NCBI GenBank assembly: GCA_017302215.1
Contig: JAFLDX010000010.1
Span: 1 to 33,701, forward strand
Reading direction: 5' to 3'
DNA length: 33,701 nucleotides
Source: Lysobacterales bacterium
Lineage (GTDB): Bacteria > Pseudomonadota > Gammaproteobacteria > Xanthomonadales > Rhodanobacteraceae
Made by a program: the position numbers and the translations under genes. Below, piece by piece: positions 12,132 to 32,483 of this stretch (the stretch's first letter is position 1; the number at the start of each line of letters is the position of its first letter). A model generated the notes under the pieces. It was not told the origin of the DNA and did no database searches. It worked only from the letters and a program-made list of their open reading frames with translations.

Positions 12132-14348
12132 TCACGGTTCGTCGATGCGCGCGCGGATCGGATCGAAACACGGGTCCGCGTCGACGCGTGCGCGCGATAC
12201 GACCTGTCCGGCCGGGCGCTCGAGCAACCCGCGTACGCGTTCCGCTGCCCCGGCGAGATCTCCGGCCTGGATCTCGATCTCCGCCAGTGCGGCGTGCAAG
12301 GGCGGCGCCGTGACGGCATCGCGCTCGAGCGGGAACCTGAGCGCGATGTCGCGCGCGAGGACGAGTGCCTGCGTTGCGTGTCCGGAACGTGCCATGACGA
12401 GGGCGTGCACGATCTGCAGGTTGCGGTCGTCGGCGGATTCGCGGCGTCGTGCCTCGATCAGGCGCGCGGCCTGCGCGAAGGCATCTGCTGCGGCGGTCAC
12501 GTCCGATCTCGACGCGAAGGCGAGTCCTCGCAGGTACGCGGCGGGTGTCTGCGTCGACGGGAGAAACGGCGAGACGACCCAGTCCGGTGCACCTTGCAGC
12601 GCAGCGATCGCGGCATCGGCATCGTGGCGCAGCCACGCGATCGCGAACGCGACGCCATAGCGGTAGCGGTTCTCGCCCGGGCTTTCGGGAAGTGCGCCGA
12701 GCAGCGCCGCGGCGCGGACCGCGTCGCCGCTCATCAGCACCGCGATGACCTCGTGCAGGCGCGCGACATGCTGGGCGGGATCTGCCGCGACCGAGCGCTG
12801 GTAGGCGACCACGGCGTCGTCGTAGCGACGCAGCATCATCAAGGCATGGCCACGCTCCATGTGCCAGCGCGGATTGCGCGGATCGCGGCCGATCGCCTGT
12901 TCGTAGGCATCGATCGCCCCCTGCAGGTGGCCCTGCCGACGCAGCACGCCGGCGATCGCCACGCTGACGTCGCTGTCTCCGGGCTGCAGGGCGCGCGCAC
13001 GCTCGAATGCGGCGAGCGCACCCGCGTAGTCGCGGTCGCGGTAATAGTGGACATAGCCGAGGGCGAGATGGCCCTGGGCGAGGTCCGGCGCGAGCGCGAT
13101 CGCGGTGCGCGCGGCCTGTTCGGCCGAACGCTGCGTGGCCGGATCGTTGTCGAGGTAGTACCAGCCACTCAGGCTCTCGACGTAGGACAGGCGCGCCCAG
13201 GCGAGCGCGAACACCGGATCCGCGGCGATCGCCTGCCGATACAGGCGACGAGCCTCGGTCGCAGCCGCGGTGGCATCGGCACTCGCCTGCCGGGCCAGCT
13301 GGTCGGTGAGGTACTCGGCTCGCAGGAAATCGTCATACGCGGCCAGATTGCGGGTCGGCACGTATGCGACCCTCGCCCGTTCGGCGCTCGTCAGCGCGAC
13401 GCGCAGCGCCGCCGCAACGCGCTCGGCGATCTCGTTCTGCACGTCGAACACGTCGGTCATGCCGCGCACGTAGGTATCCCCCCAGACGTGCTTGCCGGTT
13501 CGGGCGTCGACCAGCACCACGTTGACGCGGATGCGATCGCCGAGCCGCTGCACGCTGCCCTCGAGCAGGTGGGCGACCCCGAGCGCGCGCGCGATCTCCG
13601 CCGGCGCAGCGCCGTCCGCACCGCGATCGCGCGTCGCATCGCGCGCCATCACCTGGAGGTCGCCGACCGCGGCCAGCTTGGCCAGGATCGTGGCCTGCAT
13701 GCCGGCCACGAACCAGTCGCCATCGCTCGAGCCACCGAGATCGGCGAACGGCAGCACGGCCAGCGAGTTGTCGGCGACCGCGCGGGTCGAGGCGGCCGGC
13801 GGCGTCGGCTCGCGCGTTCCGAACCAGGTCGCGGCCAGCACCGCCAGCAACAGCGTTGCCGCGAGAGCGGGCCAGCGCGATCGGCGTCCCGCCATCGGCC
13901 GCTCGAGGTCGGCATCCGCTGCCGGCGGCGCCGCCGCGACCGCCTCCGTCGCGCCATCGGCCGCGCGTTCACGCGCACCTTCCATCGCATCGGCTTCATC
14001 GGGGCCCGGCCGGCGCGGCTCGCGCCGAACCGTCCCGCTGAACCGGTAGCCGTGACCACGCACCGTCTCGACCCATTCGGTGCCCGCGCCGTCGTCGAGC
14101 ACCTTGCGCACCGCGCTGACGTTCCAGCTCAGGTTGTTCTCCTCGACGATCGTCGAGGGCCACAGCGCCTCGATCAGGGCGCTGCGGGTATGCAGACGGC
14201 CCGGCTCCGCGACGAGGATCATCAGCAGGTCGAAGGCTTTCGCGTGCAGCGGCACCGGCATGCCATCGCGATACAGGCGGCGCTCGGCCGGGTCGGCGAG
14301 GAAGGGTCCGAAGACGAAAACGACGTTGCCGGTTTCCGCGGTGGTCAG
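12132..14348 (-). CDS. Membrane-anchored winged-helix transcriptional regulator with TolB/FlgO-like and TPR domains; probable CTG start
   Basis: From the likely start the protein has about 738 residues. An OmpR/CadC-type winged helix is at about 10-107 (FGPF, then PAERRLYRDG, KAFDLLMILV, then LSWNVSAVRKVL and TVRGHGYRF). One membrane span lies at about 159-176 (LAATLLLAVLAATWF). A FlgO/adenylate-cyclase-associated domain is at about 195-310 (NSLAVLPFADLG, VAHLLEGSVQRLGDRIRVNV). A long TPR array reaches the C-terminus. Such ToxR/CadC-like proteins bind DNA directly from the membrane. The first ATG (14261) lies inside the DNA-binding domain. The frame upstream has no ATG, GTG or TTG before a TGA at 14376-14378. 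A CTG at 14348 is preceded by GGAG five bases away and begins the full domain, so it is the best start. ATT at 14366 is an alternative. Confidence 0.85.
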   Translation of the reverse strand: MTTAETGNVVFVFGPFLADPAERRLYRDGMPVPLHAKAFDLLMILVAEPGRLHTRSALIEALWPSTIVEENNLSWNVSAVRKVLDDGAGTEWVETVRGHGYRFSGTVRREPRRPGPDEADAMEGARERAADGATEAVAAAPPAADADLERPMAGRRSRWPALAATLLLAVLAATWFGTREPTPPAASTRAVADNSLAVLPFADLGGSSDGDWFVAGMQATILAKLAAVGDLQVMARDATRDRGADGAAPAEIARALGVAHLLEGSVQRLGDRIRVNVVLVDARTGKHVWGDTYVRGMTDVFDVQNEIAERVAAALRVALTSAERARVAYVPTRNLAAYDDFLRAEYLTDQLARQASADATAAATEARRLYRQAIAADPVFALAWARLSYVESLSGWYYLDNDPATQRSAEQAARTAIALAPDLAQGHLALGYVHYYRDRDYAGALAAFERARALQPGDSDVSVAIAGVLRRQGHLQGAIDAYEQAIGRDPRNPRWHMERGHALMMLRRYDDAVVAYQRSVAADPAQHVARLHEVIAVLMSGDAVRAAALLGALPESPGENRYRYGVAFAIAWLRHDADAAIAALQGAPDWVVSPFLPSTQTPAAYLRGLAFASRSDVTAAADAFAQAARLIEARRRESADDRNLQIVHALVMARSGHATQALVLARDIALRFPLERDAVTAPPLHAALAEIEIQAGDLAGAAERVRGLLERPAGQVVSRARVDADPCFDPIRARIDEP

Positions 14349-14556: not shown

Positions 14557-15759
14557 ATGAACACGTTCGACCTCCCGCGACGCCTGGCGTCAGCCGGACG
14601 GGCCCTCGCCCTGGCCGTTGCGGCGATCGCCTCGGTCCCACTCGCCGCACAGACGCGCGGCCAGCTCGAATACCACTTCGAAGCGCGTGCGGTCATGCCG
14701 CTCAACATCGGCGGACATGCCACCACCGTGCTCGACTCGGGGCTCGTGATGGTCGCCGGCGGGCAGGCCCAGAACGGCACGTACCAGTCCGCGACCTACC
14801 TCTACAACCCCGCATCGGACGAGTGGACGACGTCCGGCAGCCTGGCCCAGGCCCGTCGCGGCATCCGCCTGGCACGCCTCCCGAACGGCGACGTCATCGC
14901 CATCGGCGGCAGTCTCGGCAACTCGTCGGCCCAGGTCGAACGGTTCGACCCGTCAGCCGGCACGTGGAGTTCGCTCAACGCCATGGTCGAGGCGCGTGAC
15001 AACCATGCAGTCGTCGAATTGCAGGACGGATCGATCCTCGTCATCGGCGGCCGCAAGCTCGTGAACGGCGCCGGCACCATCCTGTCGAGCGTCGAACGCT
15101 TCGACCCGGCAACCGGCCAGTGGGAAGCGCGCGCATCGCTGGCTGCCGCGCGCATGAACCACACCGCCACCCTGCTCGCCAACGGCGAAGTGCTCGTGGC
15201 TGGTGGCTACACCTCGTCGCCTGCGGGCGCGATGACGACGGCCGAGATCTACAATCCCGTGACCAACCAATGGCGGGCGGCCAGCCCGCTGCCCGAGCCG
15301 CGCATGAACCAGCATGCGGTCACGATCGCCTCCGGCGAGGTGATGCTCGCGGGCGGAAACGTGGAAGCGTTCGGCGCCGGCGCAACCGTGGGCCTGATCT
15401 ACGATCCCGTGCAGGATGCCTGGCGCTCGAGCGCGCCGTCGACGCTCGCGCGTCGCAACACCAGTGTCGAGCGCCTTCCCGACGGTCGCGTCGCGGTGAT
15501 CGGCGGGGGATCCCCAAGCGAACTGCCGGTCGCCGGATCGGCCGAGATCTACGACCCGGCGAGCAATGCCTGGACACCGCTGTTGACCCTGGTCGAGCGC
15601 CGGTTCTTGCCCGAGACCGTGGTGCTGCCATCGGGAAACGTCCTCGTGATCGGCGGACAGCGCCCGACGCCTTCGACCTCCTACCTCGCGGCCGTCGAGG
15701 AGATGGTCGGCACGGCGCCCGACGCGATCTTCAGCGACGGATTCGACGAAGTGCCCTGA
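14557..15759 (+). CDS. Secreted seven-bladed kelch-like beta-propeller with C-terminal FSDGFD motif
   Basis: This 400-residue protein has a signal peptide (RALALAVAAIASVPLAAQ) and AGGAG at 14544-14548 before the ATG. Seven copies of a kelch-type core follow, for example LDSGLVMVAGG, LPNGDVIAIGG, LQDGSILVIGG, LANGEVLVAGG, IASGEVMLAGG, LPDGRVAVIGG and LPSGNVLVIGG. Each is followed by an ERFDP- or EIYNP-type turn and NxW. This implies a closed seven-blade propeller, similar to galactose-oxidase-like kelch domains but without visible copper ligands. The C-terminus AIFSDGFDEVP matches the short ending found on another secreted protein in this window. It is divergent from the winged-helix/TPR regulator, which could control it. 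Confidence 0.92.
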   Translation: MNTFDLPRRLASAGRALALAVAAIASVPLAAQTRGQLEYHFEARAVMPLNIGGHATTVLDSGLVMVAGGQAQNGTYQSATYLYNPASDEWTTSGSLAQARRGIRLARLPNGDVIAIGGSLGNSSAQVERFDPSAGTWSSLNAMVEARDNHAVVELQDGSILVIGGRKLVNGAGTILSSVERFDPATGQWEARASLAAARMNHTATLLANGEVLVAGGYTSSPAGAMTTAEIYNPVTNQWRAASPLPEPRMNQHAVTIASGEVMLAGGNVEAFGAGATVGLIYDPVQDAWRSSAPSTLARRNTSVERLPDGRVAVIGGGSPSELPVAGSAEIYDPASNAWTPLLTLVERRFLPETVVLPSGNVLVIGGQRPTPSTSYLAAVEEMVGTAPDAIFSDGFDEVP

Positions 15760-23570: not shown

Positions 23571-25676
23571 TCAGGCGCGAGGGCGGCCGGCGGCATCCGC
23601 CCCGTCGACGTCGGCGACGTCGAGCAGCGGACGCCCGGCCTCGACCAGCGCGCGCATGGCCGCCCACGGCATCGGCTTGCCGATCAGGTAGCCCTGGGCC
23701 TCGTCGACGCCGCACAGGCGCAGGAAACGCAATTGCTCGATCCTCTCGACGCCTTCCACGCAGACCGTCATCTCGAGCTTCTTCGCGAACTCGATGATCC
23801 CGCTCAGCAGCTGCTTCGCGCGCGCGCTGCCGAACGCGGCGTCCAGCATGGACTTGTCGATCTTCAGTTGGGTGATGCCGAGATCGGCCAGCCGTGAAAG
23901 CGAGGAGTAGCCGACGCCGAAATCGTCGATGGCGAGGTGGATGTCATTGCGCTGGAGCAGCGCGATCGAAGTCTTGAAGTCGTCAATCGGGTCCGGGAGT
24001 TCATCCTCGATGATCTCCACATTGATCGGCAGCACGCGCCCGGCCTCGATGATGCGCTCGACCAGGGGCATGCTGAGCAGCGAACGCGGGTGCACGTTGA
24101 CGTGGATGAGCGGCGGCGTCACGCGTTCGATGTCCCATGCGCTCCATTCCGCCACGAGGTTCTCGACCACCCAGCCATCGATCTCGCCCGCCAGGTTGGC
24201 CCGTTTCAGGGCGCCGAGGAAATGCGGTGCGAGGATACCCTCGACGCGATGGTTCAGGCGCAGCAGCGACTCGACACCGACGATGCGTCCGTGCGCGACG
24301 CCGACGATCGGCTGGTAGTACGAGACCAGCGATCCTTCGCGCATGAGCCTGAGGGCGTGCGCGAGATCGCTGTCGTCGCGCGGTTCCGCCGCACCGAGGG
24401 TGTCGCTCTCGACGTGGGTTACGGGCGTCGAGGAGCCGAACCGGAAACGGTCCCTGAACTCCATGACGCTGTCGCCGATCGCGCTCTGCGCGGCTTCCCA
24501 GCGACGAACGAACGGAACGTAGATCGCGATCGCGATGACCAGGTTGAACGCCGCCAACCCCACCGCGGCCCAGCTTCCACCGGTCGCCAGCCAGGCACCC
24601 AGCAACGGCGGCGTGGTCCAGCCCGGGTACTGCGTCGGGATCGGCACGATCCCGGCCGAGATCGCGAAGTACGCGACCGACGTGCATGCCAATGGCGCGA
24701 TGACGAACGGCGGCATGAGGTAGCGATTGAAAATCACGGGCAAGCCGTAGATCAGAAGTTCATTGACGTTGAAACACAGGACCGGCATGGCCGAGGCACA
24801 GATCAGGCGCTTGGTCCGCGAGCGCGCGACCAGGAAGATCGCGATCGCGAGCGCGAGTGCCGTGCCGCTGCCGCCGAGGTTGACGAACGCCGAGAACGCC
24901 GGCGAGGGAAACAGGTTCGGTGCAACGCCGCCCGCGGCGGTCACGGCGGCGTTCTCGCTGAAGTTCATCATCAGGTCGCGCACCCACGGCATGAGCGCGA
25001 GCGAGCCGTGGATGCCCAGCGTCCAAAGTGCATTCAGCACGACGACGTAGACGACGAGCGAAGGAAAGTGGTTGGCCCAGCCGTCGCGGTGCAGGATCGC
25101 GACCAGCGACGACCAGTCGGTGGCCTGGATCGCGCCGTCCAGCACGACCGCAACGGCAACGATCATCACCGTCGGCAACACGTAGTTGAGGAAGCGGCGC
25201 ACGTAGGCATTCTGGTGCGGCGACCGGAACAGCTGCAGGATCGAGATCCGTTCGAGTCGCGACAACGCCCATGGCACGATCGGCCCGACGAACAGCGAGT
25301 ACACGTTGCCGAGCAGCGAAAGCTCGTCGATGCGGCGCGGCGACTCGCGATCGAGGGTCAGCGTGAGCAGCAGGAACACGAACAACGAGAGTGCGACCGC
25401 GAAGGGCCGGTTGCTGCCGTAGAGATTGGCGGCGTGGTAGCTGATCGTGCACACGGCCAGGGCCGGCAGCAACGACAACACGAAGGTGTGCACGTAGAAG
25501 AGGAGGTCGCGCATCGACCGCCACTGTTCCGCCGGAATGAACAGGTCGACTCCGGCGACGATCGCGATGTCGATGCCCTGCAGCAGGATCAGCGGAAGCA
25601 GCGTGGCATAGCCGCTGCGGATCGCGACCAGGGGCCTCCACTCGGACGCGGCATGGAACATTCCGGTGGATTTCAT
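23571..25676 (-). CDS. PTS EIIC (cellobiose/chitobiose type) fused to EAL c-di-GMP phosphodiesterase
   Basis: Residues 1-395 of 701 form a 10-span PTS EIIC of the CelB/ChbC family. GIHG (His223) and FNVNELLIYGLP (Glu306) are present, the sugar-binding residues of the family. PGWTTPPLLGAWLATGG closes it. After a short linker, residues 435-685 form an EAL domain: ESLLRL (Glu469), HVNVHP (Asn527), EIIEDEL (Glu554), AIDDFGVGYSS (Asp584/585), LKIDKSM (Lys605), EGVE (Glu641), QGYLIGKP (Gln661). All catalytic positions look intact, so it likely hydrolyses c-di-GMP. No EIIA or EIIB is encoded nearby. Sugar sensing coupled to c-di-GMP breakdown is inferred. GGGAGG before the ATG fixes the start. It ends with an Asp/Ala-rich tail. 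Confidence 0.93.
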   Translation of the reverse strand: MKSTGMFHAASEWRPLVAIRSGYATLLPLILLQGIDIAIVAGVDLFIPAEQWRSMRDLLFYVHTFVLSLLPALAVCTISYHAANLYGSNRPFAVALSLFVFLLLTLTLDRESPRRIDELSLLGNVYSLFVGPIVPWALSRLERISILQLFRSPHQNAYVRRFLNYVLPTVMIVAVAVVLDGAIQATDWSSLVAILHRDGWANHFPSLVVYVVVLNALWTLGIHGSLALMPWVRDLMMNFSENAAVTAAGGVAPNLFPSPAFSAFVNLGGSGTALALAIAIFLVARSRTKRLICASAMPVLCFNVNELLIYGLPVIFNRYLMPPFVIAPLACTSVAYFAISAGIVPIPTQYPGWTTPPLLGAWLATGGSWAAVGLAAFNLVIAIAIYVPFVRRWEAAQSAIGDSVMEFRDRFRFGSSTPVTHVESDTLGAAEPRDDSDLAHALRLMREGSLVSYYQPIVGVAHGRIVGVESLLRLNHRVEGILAPHFLGALKRANLAGEIDGWVVENLVAEWSAWDIERVTPPLIHVNVHPRSLLSMPLVERIIEAGRVLPINVEIIEDELPDPIDDFKTSIALLQRNDIHLAIDDFGVGYSSLSRLADLGITQLKIDKSMLDAAFGSARAKQLLSGIIEFAKKLEMTVCVEGVERIEQLRFLRLCGVDEAQGYLIGKPMPWAAMRALVEAGRPLLDVADVDGADAAGRPRA

Positions 25677-25904
25677 GCCGCCTCCCGTGCCGAGTCGCTC
25701 TCCTTGACCGATCTGTGTACCACGTCGCCGGGACCACGACCAGCGCGGGCGCCCGCGGTGCTCCCGTGCGGCTCGCGGGCACGACGGCGACACAGCGGAC
25801 GAATGGCGCGGGCAGGCGGCCGCAACGGGCGGACCGGGCACGCGCCGCGCTCCGGCGCGGTGACATCGGAGGGTTTGCGAAGCGTGCGGAGTTGACGCCG
25901 GGAT

Positions 25905-31004: not shown

Positions 31005-32483
31005 GTGGAACGATCATCGGCTCTACCGGCACGGGGACATCGTGGCTGCGCCAGCGCGCTCGCGGCGGTGTTGGCGACAGGGTTCGGTGCACTCGGCGCA
31101 ACGGCCACGGCGGCCGAACTCGCCAGCGTCGGTCCCGTCTACGTCGACTTCGGCGCGATCAAGGTCGGCACGACGGTCAGCATTCCGGTGCGCGTGCGCA
31201 ACCTGACCGCCTTGCCGATGACGTTCGCCGGCGGCGGATTCAGCGACACGCAGGCATTCTTCGGCTCGAACGGCAGCTGCGGCGGCAGTCTCGCGGCCGG
31301 TGCGACCTGCGCCCTCGACTACACGTTCCGCCCGCCCCAAGCCGGCAACACGGCGTTTCAGGCCTCGACCTCGCTGTCGGTCATCGTGGCCGGCTCGGCC
31401 CAGGCGTTCGCGCTCGAGTTCGCCGGCTCGGGCACCGAAAGCCTCGTCCAGCTCACGCCGCGCCACATCGACTTCGGCAAGTGGCTGGTCGGCCAGCAGG
31501 TCATCGTGCCGGTCACCGTCACCAACACGCACGCCTCGACCGTCACCTTCGGCGGCGGCGGCTTCGCCCCGGGACCGTTCACCGGCATCTCGGGCACCTG
31601 CGGCGGCACGCCGCTCGCGGCCGGCGCTTCGTGTCACTTCAACTATCGGTTCATTCCGGCCGAGGTCGGCTCGGTCAGCGCCGCGACGAGCATCGGCGTG
31701 AGTGCCGCCTCGCCGGCACCGGCGCTCGGCGAGGCCTATCCGATCACGGTCACCGGTACCGGCGTCGCGAGCGTGCCGATCGTCGGCGTGGCGCCGGTCT
31801 CGATCGGCTTCGGCAGGATCAAGGTCGGCACGCGCGCGAGCGTGCCGTTTCCGTTTACCAATCAGACCGCGCAGACACTGTCGTTCGGCGGCGGCGGCTT
31901 CAGCCCCGGCAACGACGGCGACGGCGCCTTCAGCGGCGGCTCGGCGACTGGTGCCGGCTGCAACACCGCGATGGGCCAGGCCCTGCCGGGCGCGACCTGC
32001 ACGGGCCAGTACCGCTTCGAGCCGCGCGTCGAAGGCGTCGCCAGCGCGAGCACGAGCTACGGTTTCTCGGTTCCCGGCACGAGCGTCAACCAGCCGATCA
32101 GCGTCACCGGCGAAGGCACCGGCACGCTCGCCCAGCTCACGCCGAACGACATCGACTTCGGCCGCGTCGCGTTCGGCACCACGCTGAGCGTGCCGGTCAC
32201 GCTGACCAACACGAGCGGCAAAACCTTGACCAGCATCCTCGGCGGCTCGGTGACACAGCCGTTCTCGTCGTCGACGACCTGCGGCACGACGCTCGCCGCC
32301 GGCGCGAGCTGCAGCTGGACCTACACCTTCAACGCCGGCCAGCCGAACGCGGCCATCGGCGCCACCGTCACGCGCCAGACCCTGGTCTCGTTCACCAACA
32401 CGACCGGCATCCAGCCCGTGGTCGCCGTGACGATGACCGCGACGCGTGGAGATCGCCTGTTCGGTGATGGCTTCGACGACTGA
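31005..32483 (+). CDS. Secreted choice-of-anchor-D repeat protein with C-terminal FGDGFDD
   Basis: The preferred start is GTG at 31005 with GAGGG at 30992-30996, giving MERSSALPARG-type n-region then ASALAAVLATGFGALGATAT as signal peptide. The frame stays open farther upstream (a TTG at 30945), but that would bury the signal. The 492-residue mature protein has four immunoglobulin-like repeats of the ASH/HYDIN (choice-of-anchor D) type, each opening like VDFGAIKVGTTVSIPV, IDFGKWLVGQQVIVPV, IGFGRIKVGTRASVPF and IDFGRVAFGTTLSVPV. It has Gly-rich FGGGGF turns and several Cys pairs. It ends DRLFGDGFDD, the same signature as the kelch protein. A surface or matrix role is inferred. Confidence 0.88.
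   Translation: MERSSALPARGHRGCASALAAVLATGFGALGATATAAELASVGPVYVDFGAIKVGTTVSIPVRVRNLTALPMTFAGGGFSDTQAFFGSNGSCGGSLAAGATCALDYTFRPPQAGNTAFQASTSLSVIVAGSAQAFALEFAGSGTESLVQLTPRHIDFGKWLVGQQVIVPVTVTNTHASTVTFGGGGFAPGPFTGISGTCGGTPLAAGASCHFNYRFIPAEVGSVSAATSIGVSAASPAPALGEAYPITVTGTGVASVPIVGVAPVSIGFGRIKVGTRASVPFPFTNQTAQTLSFGGGGFSPGNDGDGAFSGGSATGAGCNTAMGQALPGATCTGQYRFEPRVEGVASASTSYGFSVPGTSVNQPISVTGEGTGTLAQLTPNDIDFGRVAFGTTLSVPVTLTNTSGKTLTSILGGSVTQPFSSSTTCGTTLAAGASCSWTYTFNAGQPNAAIGATVTRQTLVSFTNTTGIQPVVAVTMTATRGDRLFGDGFDD

What the first reader, a model, noticed from the sequence alone, without database searches (positions are those of the whole stretch)
15721..15759. Shared C-terminal FxDGFD signature on unrelated secreted proteins
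The kelch protein ends DAIFSDGFDEVP and the choice-of-anchor-D protein (32451-32483) ends DRLFGDGFDD, although their domains are unrelated. Both have signal peptides, and the motif occupies the last 10-12 residues. That pattern resembles a sorting or processing tag (as PEP-CTERM and GlyGly-CTERM do), or a secretion signal. I recall similar IFxDGFE/D endings in Dokdonella and Lysobacter-type secretomes, but know of no named system. A dedicated export or processing machine could recognise it.
Basis: partly seen in the sequence, partly recalled or inferred. Interest (0 to 1): 0.8.

Follow-up and report, generated by a model that had tools for sequence, protein, structure and literature searches.

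The report
Portable peptide tag for protein export
Dozens of unrelated proteins of this bacterium, most of them predicted to be exported, carry the same nine-residue peptide (D-x-I/L-F-x-D-G-F-D/E), which likely serves as an address label read by a second type II secretion machine, a kind of linear label that such machines have been thought to lack.

Summary
In the window's genome the codon pattern for FxDGF[DE] occurs 51 times against 1 backward control; 44 of 50 places read lie in the last 20 residues of a frame. Unselected flanks are conserved: I/L/V at -1 (99%), D at -3 (71%). It is no PEP-CTERM-type signal: no transmembrane part follows, and it also occurs in loops. In a subtilase family 93 of 98 full-length homologs carry exactly one tag, in one of three places; none carries two. 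Over 200 genomes of the order it tracks a second type II secretion system (class A, gspC-D-E, GspC with PDZ): of 139 genomes at least 95% complete, 56 have both, 77 neither, 4 system only, 2 tag only. A genus that seemed to break the rule uses FxDRF[DE]. I read it as a linear, portable recognition tag for that system. Recognition is inferred; two f8 genomes keep tags without the system, and shared descent is not excluded. I found no name for it in the NCBIfam, Pfam and paper searches made.

The parts
15721..15747 (+). tag D-A-I-F-S-D-G-F-D of the kelch protein (followed by EVP and stop 15757-15759)
   Evidence: sequence; residues 391-400 have mean pLDDT 51, after a propeller at about 94-98
14557..15756 (+). 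kelch beta-propeller protein, 400 aa, predicted signal peptide
   Evidence: (Kelch_4 7.4e-39)
32451..32477 (+). tag D-R-L-F-G-D-G-F-D of the choice-of-anchor-D protein (followed by D and stop 32481-32483)
   Evidence: sequence
31005..32480 (+). choice-of-anchor-D protein, predicted signal peptide; the GTG start at 31005 is my choice, TTG 30945 gives the longer frame, my gene caller took 31068
   Evidence: NF012200 1.1e-42, four stretches; starts
12132..14261 (-). winged-helix plus TPR regulator, divergent neighbour of the tagged kelch gene; relatives of such regulators often adjoin tagged genes elsewhere
   Evidence: Pfam Trans_reg_C and TPR; adjacency test in other genomes

Best explanation
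The FxDGF[DE] ending is one copy of a nine-residue peptide tag, D-x-[ILV]-F-x-[DN]-G-F-[DE], that is found at the C-terminus, after predicted signal peptides or in loops of dozens of unrelated proteins, and it likely acts as the recognition signal by which a second, PDZ-bearing type II secretion system (class A, gspC-D-E) would select folded cargo in the periplasm. Steps: (1) Sec export by the signal peptide (predicted). (2) The protein folds and the tag stays flexible (AlphaFold2 models of two proteins). (3) The tag docks on a periplasmic part of class A, most likely the PDZ region of GspC or the N-domains of GspD (inferred from co-occurrence and from published PelI-OutC and VesB-EpsC work). 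(4) The cargo leaves through the class-A secretin (inferred). Shown: the tag, its conservation, its changing position, one copy per protein in one family, its co-occurrence with class A, and a DRF form of the tag in two genera that have class A. Not shown: binding, secretion, cleavage or not.
For: (a) Co-occurrence over the same 200 genomes of the order (tag; GspC: 49; GspD: 50). Of 139 genomes at least 95% complete: 56 both, 4 class A only, 2 tag only, 77 neither (phi 0.91). All 200: 85, 15, 12, 88. (b) Inside families: f1 has 4 genera with both (own genus counted by G031; G000 itself shows only a GspC fragment, 96 bits at a contig end) and 11 with neither; f2 has 1 with both and 11 with neither; f9 has 2 with both, 1 with neither (g30: 4 of its 8 pattern hits were read, none a tag) and 1 with class A only (g48). 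(c) Genus g24 looked like an exception; its choice-of-anchor-Q proteins end in FxDRF forms (13 of 20 loci), and the DRF codon pattern gives 11-91 hits in 18 of 21 g24 genomes and 44 in g63, but 0-14 in the other 178. (d) Class-A GspD is one clade (SH-aLRT 99); its GspC matches OutC and the PDZ domains of PulC and EpsC. (e) Subtilase family: of 98 full-length homologs (of 120 listed) 71 carry a relaxed form of the tag in one loop only, 12 in a loop near the end only, 10 at the C-terminus only, 5 escape the rule, none has two; with the strict motif 52, 12, 9 and 25 without. A signal that works from a loop of a folded domain fits a system that exports folded proteins. (f) In models of two proteins the tag is at mean pLDDT about 51, after or between confident parts. 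(g) In print, an exposed 9-residue loop of PelI acts as a secretion signal read by GspC and GspD (PMC7949064, abstract and passages), and the EpsC PDZ is needed for VesB (PMC12369372, abstract and Discussion).
Against: G063 and G097 (f8, 97-98% complete) keep by my reading about 10 of 17 and 9 of 14 tag-like endings but have no class-A GspC or GspD and no T2SSC match; G171 (about 5 of 11) and G132 are similar but less complete. G064, G082, G089 and G183 (at least 95% complete) have class A and few pattern hits. Within f8 no genus has both. The genomes are related and I had no species tree, so the counts are not independent evidence; roughly three joint absences (f1, f2, f9) carry the weight, and other genes with the same history could show the same profile. 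Few other families could be tested. GspC columns that differ between DGF and DRF genomes gave no clear contact-like covariation. gspG-gspM of class A were not looked for. The tag is not strictly C-terminal, so classical PDZ binding of a free C-terminus would not be enough. Only the best 120 of 2258 subtilase homologs were listed, and the query was itself tagged.
Confidence: 0.58

Rival explanations
1. The tag is read by another, still unknown export or surface-display factor that shares the evolutionary history of the class-A type II system; class A is only a marker of lineage.
For: Tags without class A in G063, G097 and G171; profile data cannot separate genes with the same history; I could test only a few families.
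Against: Class A fits closely in f1, f2 and f10 and mostly in f9, and its function (export of folded periplasmic proteins) is what a loop-borne tag calls for; exosortase, the one rival family tested over all 200, fits much worse (phi 0.40).
Confidence: 0.25
2. The tag works after export: a surface receptor or matrix component binds it and holds tagged proteins on the cell, as an anchor.
For: Two tagged families here are choice-of-anchor families (NF012200, NF041518), and in genus g24 two choice-of-anchor-Q proteins end in what looks like an IPTL-type anchor where most relatives read end in FxDRF forms.
Against: The tag tracks an exporter; I know of no receptor gene and searched for none; anchors of the known kinds sit at one end (recalled), this tag also sits in loops.
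Confidence: 0.12
3. A C-terminal sorting signal cleaved by a sortase-like enzyme, as PEP-CTERM (exosortase) or GlyGly-CTERM (rhombosortase).
For: Mostly C-terminal (44 of 50 places), dozens per genome, choice-of-anchor domains.
Against: No transmembrane segment or basic end after the motif in the C-terminal copies; positions in loops and after signal peptides; exosortase family in 31 of 58 tag-rich and 13 of 81 tag-poor genomes at least 95% complete, and no match in G110, the genome with most DGF hits. Rhombosortase was not tested.
Confidence: 0.03
4. Chance, shared ancestry of the proteins, or a DNA-level repeat.
For: Only a few coincidental hits: a sugar-transferase-like protein (L018, L128) and an acetyltransferase-like frame (L044), both judged by eye.
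Against: 51 against 1 control; unrelated domains; 19 different codon combinations for the five core codons in the G000 loci; tags are in frame and mostly stop-proximal.
Confidence: 0.01

Closest known systems
Loop secretion signal of pectate lyase PelI/Pel3 for the Out type II system
   Same: Short, exposed, flexible stretch (9 residues in PelI) read by GspC and GspD; lies in an Fn3 loop (PMC7949064, abstract and passages).
   Different: Specific to one enzyme pair and part of a composite signal; here one consensus is shared by dozens of unrelated proteins and moves between loops and termini.
VesB Ig-fold, dependent on the EpsC PDZ domain
   Same: GspC PDZ needed for export of a particular cargo; the signal can be grafted (PMC12369372, abstract and Discussion).
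   Different: A structural domain of one substrate; [quoted passage not shown]
PEP-CTERM/exosortase and GlyGly-CTERM/rhombosortase
   Same: Short C-terminal signature on many unrelated exported proteins of a genome.
   Different: Those have motif, transmembrane helix and basic end (recalled; PMC3237569 and PMC1569441 seen only in the search listing); this tag has none and is not bound to the C-terminus.
Canonical type II secretion system (OutC/OutD, PulC, EpsC)
   Same: Class-A GspC, GspD, GspE, GspF match in Pfam, and GspC and GspD in PDB.
   Different: Small locus (gspC-D-E, gspF in some) often beside rhlB-, rho-, trx- or ftsE/ftsX-like genes; a second system next to a class-B GspD in the same genomes.

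Membership tests
PEP-CTERM / exosortase sorting | transmembrane helix and basic residues after the motif | tested here: not met
   0-14 further residues after the motif in the 44 C-terminal copies, no hydrophobic stretch
PEP-CTERM / exosortase sorting | cognate exosortase in the same genomes | tested here: not met
   PF09721 in 31 of 58 tag-rich genomes at least 95% complete; no match in G110, G012, G000
GlyGly-CTERM / rhombosortase | Gly-Gly motif plus transmembrane helix | tested here: not met
   motif composition and tails
GlyGly-CTERM / rhombosortase | rhombosortase present | not tested
   no genome search left
Type II secretion substrate | cleavable Sec/Tat signal peptide | tested here: met
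   predicted by a home-made rule in 54 of 68 C-tagged genes against 188 of 476 untagged; not every one
Type II secretion substrate | export lost in a gsp mutant | not testable with these tools
   needs an experiment
Canonical type II secretion system (class A) | secretin GspD with N0-N domains | tested here: met
   PF00263, PF03958, PF21305; GspD structures in PDB
Canonical type II secretion system (class A) | GspC with HR and C-terminal PDZ | tested here: met
   PF11356 1.1e-26; profile matches 6hcg, 5hj1, 2i4s; Pfam PDZ models are just under their cut-offs for the one sequence scanned
Canonical type II secretion system (class A) | GspE, GspF, pseudopilins, GspL, GspM | tested here: inconclusive
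   GspE (G031) and GspF (G110) found; gspG-gspM not looked for

The most novel reading that the evidence does not exclude
A type II secretion system with a true linear, portable secretion code: a nine-residue peptide, sufficient in a loop or at either end of any folded protein, is bound by the class-A GspC PDZ (or GspD N-domains), and the code has re-evolved from DGF to DRF together with its reader in one lineage, so that tag and machine form an orthogonal pair.
Probability: 0.35. Interest if true: 0.95.

Novelty: new variant of a known kind. Interest (0 to 1): 0.85.

Why it matters
How type II secretion systems recognise their cargo is an open question; two papers of 2025 say that a conserved signal has not been identified (PMC11981180, Introduction passage) and that a linear universal signal is lacking (PMC12369372, Discussion). 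If this tag is such a signal in one bacterial order, recognition becomes testable with a nine-residue peptide, secretomes can be predicted from sequence, and tag grafting could be used to export folded proteins. The DGF/DRF switch offers a natural experiment on co-evolution of signal and reader.

Tried and rejected
Window neighbourhood as the source of the machine: 20 window frames were scanned with Pfam, nothing relevant. General type II secretion as the determinant: TIGR02517 matches in 62 of 62 genomes at E 0.001 (59 over the curated cut-off), so its mere presence does not explain the tag; the split came from a second GspD. Exosortase: phi 0.40. Recurrent neighbours of tagged genes gave regulators, no exporter. 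GspC residues tracking DGF versus DRF: 11 columns differ, none clearly contact-like, and they may just follow the phylogeny. First signal-peptide count was poor because my gene caller misplaces starts; repeated over upstream starts. First gene caller missed many tagged genes and was retrained. Homologs of the window kelch protein helped little: of 120 listed, two end in the tag, one being the window protein itself; the nearest other ends FGSDFE; the rest are without it. One named scan for the exact DNA: 56 of 63 hits end a frame of at least 100 aa; hits labelled Verrucomicrobiales (8-residue frame) and Acidobacteria (92 aa) were discounted. Phylum scan: 11 of 299 genomes match; outside the order nine single hits, eight of them in frames of at most 52 aa. 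Not found in print in these searches: (open-licence PubMed Central only).

Full report
Observation. The window is one whole contig (C2) of a 3.5 Mb, 318-contig draft genome. Of 63 named hits to one exact tag DNA, 34 are Dokdonella; Chiayiivirga, Tahibacter and Pseudofulvimonas also appear. The kelch protein (14557-15759 +) ends DAIFSDGFDEVP and the choice-of-anchor-D protein ends DRLFGDGFDD. The codon pattern for F-x-D-G-F-[DE] occurs 51 times in the genome, the backward control once. I read 50 of the 51 places: 44 lie in the last 20 residues of the frame. By eye the other six are one tag directly after a signal peptide (L036), three inside longer proteins (L003, L024, L032) and two that look like coincidence (L018, sugar-transferase-like; L044, acetyltransferase-like).

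What is conserved. From 118 C-terminal copies (of 143 matches of F.[DN]GF[DE] in the G000 loci and in the 40 neighbourhoods), positions not fixed by my pattern stand out: I/L/V at -1 (99%) and D or E at -3 (71% and 8%); +1 is free with A favoured (45%); 0-14 residues follow, most often none (37 of 118). The tag is therefore D-x-[ILV]-F-x-[DN]-G-F-[DE]. The five core codons appear in 19 combinations in the G000 loci, so selection acts on the peptide. Carriers are unrelated: kelch, choice-of-anchor D and Q, PD40 propellers, glucose/sorbosone dehydrogenase-like, PQQ-like, DUF4394 and others. In 12 tagged proteins scanned with NCBIfam and 11 with Pfam no best-scoring stretch reaches the tag.

Position. 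Of 91 tagged gene entries, 72 have the motif within 20 residues of the end and 19 farther in; some of the latter are coincidence (L128). One tagged subtilase has it in a loop of an insert in its protease part. A search gave 2258 homologs, 120 listed; 98 of these are full length (740-960 aa) and were aligned, 22 were left out. With a relaxed motif 71 have one tag in that loop, 12 one tag in a loop near the end, 10 one tag at the C-terminus, none has two, 5 escape the rule; of those five, three read I-L-x-D-G-F-D near the end and two have a worn form in the first loop. With the strict motif the numbers are 52, 12, 9 and 25 without. The tag thus changes place but is kept once per protein. AlphaFold2 models: kelch residues 391-400 at mean pLDDT 51 after a propeller at about 94-98; subtilase residues 461-470 at mean 51 between two strands. 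Tags directly after a predicted signal peptide occur in L036, L226 and L197.

Distribution. In 299 genomes of the phylum only the own genome (13) and G012 (3) have more than one copy of the motif-plus-stop pattern; only seven of the 299 belong to the order. In 200 genomes of the order counts are sharply uneven: 0-6 in most genera of families f1 and f2, but 108 in G110, 65 in G031, 68 in G091, and tens in f3, f5, most of f4 and f12 and parts of f9 and f10.

The machine. TIGR02517 (GspD) is in 62 of 62 genomes tested, but 29 of the 30 tag-rich ones among them hold a GspD of a separate kind, all but the own draft. In a tree of 39 GspD the 20 of this kind, chosen by score from 20 genomes, form one clade (SH-aLRT 99; quick search); two f2 proteins lie near but outside it, the other 17 form a distant group. 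The locus is gspC-gspD-gspE, with gspF in about half of the stretches, in many loci beside rhlB-, rho-, trx- or ftsE/ftsX-like genes (neighbour names by eye). GspC has the T2SSC domain and matches the EpsC and PulC PDZ structures. I searched the same 200 genomes with class-A GspC and GspD profiles. Counting class A as present where GspC scores at least 100 bits, and tag-rich as at least 10 DGF or 10 DRF hits: all 200: 85 both, 15 class A only, 12 tag only, 88 neither; at least 95% complete: 56, 4, 2, 77. Exosortase, tested the same way in the 139, gives 31, 13, 27, 68. The thresholds were set after seeing the data; 12 and 15 give the same picture. Chance hits reach at least 9 per genome: G060 has 9, and none of the 4 read is a tag.

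Exceptions, and what they taught. Genus g24 has class A (19 of 21 genomes) but few DGF hits, and of all 15 DGF hits of G037 and G009 only one is a tag. Its choice-of-anchor-Q proteins end in FxDRF forms: of 20 g24 loci, 13 end so, 1 in FGSRFD, 1 in FADGFE, 2 in an IPTL-like anchor, 1 in none, and 2 run off the stretch. The DRF pattern is at 11-91 in 18 of 21 g24 genomes (2, 7 and 8 in the others), 44 in g63, 0-14 in the other 178; G163 (g66) has both forms, 36 DGF and 11 DRF. DRF hits outside the choice-of-anchor-Q loci were counted, not read. Family f8 remains unexplained: G063 and G097 have tags (about 10 of 17 and 9 of 14 by my reading) and no class A, other f8 genomes have class A and few tags. 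G019 lacks class A; 4 of its 8 hits were read, none a tag. Seven class-A-negative, tag-rich genomes are drafts of 77-94% completeness outside f8 (G048, G059, G118, G168, G178, G182, G188), and the own genome keeps only the first part of GspC at a contig end, beside relatives of the sigma factor and kinase found at the same locus in G031.

Interpretation. A signal found in loops of folded domains and at both ends is hard to square with a C-terminal processing signal, but it is what an exporter of folded proteins could read. Published work shows an exposed 9-residue loop of PelI read by GspC and GspD (PMC7949064, abstract and passages) and a PDZ-dependent signal in VesB, and speaks of the lack of a linear universal signal (PMC12369372, abstract and Discussion; similar in PMC11981180, passages). 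In Xanthomonas XpsC the corresponding region is a single helix, not a PDZ (PMC11981180); whether class B here is Xps was not tested. I conclude that the tag is likely the recognition signal of class A. The profile rests on few independent events, recognition is inferred, and the f8 genomes speak against a strict one-to-one link.

Verdict. The tag is certain; its role in secretion likely; class A as its reader more likely than not (0.58); direct PDZ binding a guess worth testing.

Noticed in passing
window 12132-14261 (-); L104-L131: Winged-helix/TPR regulators adjoin tagged genes: 11 of 12 in the neighbourhoods are next to one (4.2 expected by shuffling within stretches); the window has one divergent from the kelch gene. 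The stretches were chosen around tags.
   Followed up: partly
L110, L113, L114, L119, L133, L134, L144, L145, L162, L253: ECF sigma factor plus Ser/Thr kinase pairs beside tagged genes (7 of 16 such genes adjacent to one, 2.9 expected) and, in G031, G110, G036 and G000, near the class-A gspC-D-E locus.
   Followed up: partly
L257, L259 (genus g24): Choice-of-anchor-Q proteins ending in an IPTL-like anchor (P-x-P, hydrophobic stretch, Arg cluster) where most relatives read in the genus end in FxDRF forms.
   Followed up: no
75 of 200 order genomes, e.g. G031:C1:684080-684517: Mostly short exosortase-like proteins matching only about positions 100-250 of PF09721; presumably for another tag.
   Followed up: no
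L036, L226, L197: Tag directly after a predicted signal peptide, at the N-terminus of the mature protein.
   Followed up: partly
L261, L271 (G097), L272 (G063); family f8: Looser endings FKDGMED, FYNGLE, YQNGFE, as if the tag were wearing away in genomes without class A.
   Followed up: no
window 23571-25841 (-): One frame holds a PTS EIIC domain and an EAL domain; the pairing struck me as unusual.
   Followed up: no
L018, L128: A sugar-transferase-like protein has FSDGFD at the same distance from its end in two genomes; looks like a family feature, not a tag.
   Followed up: no
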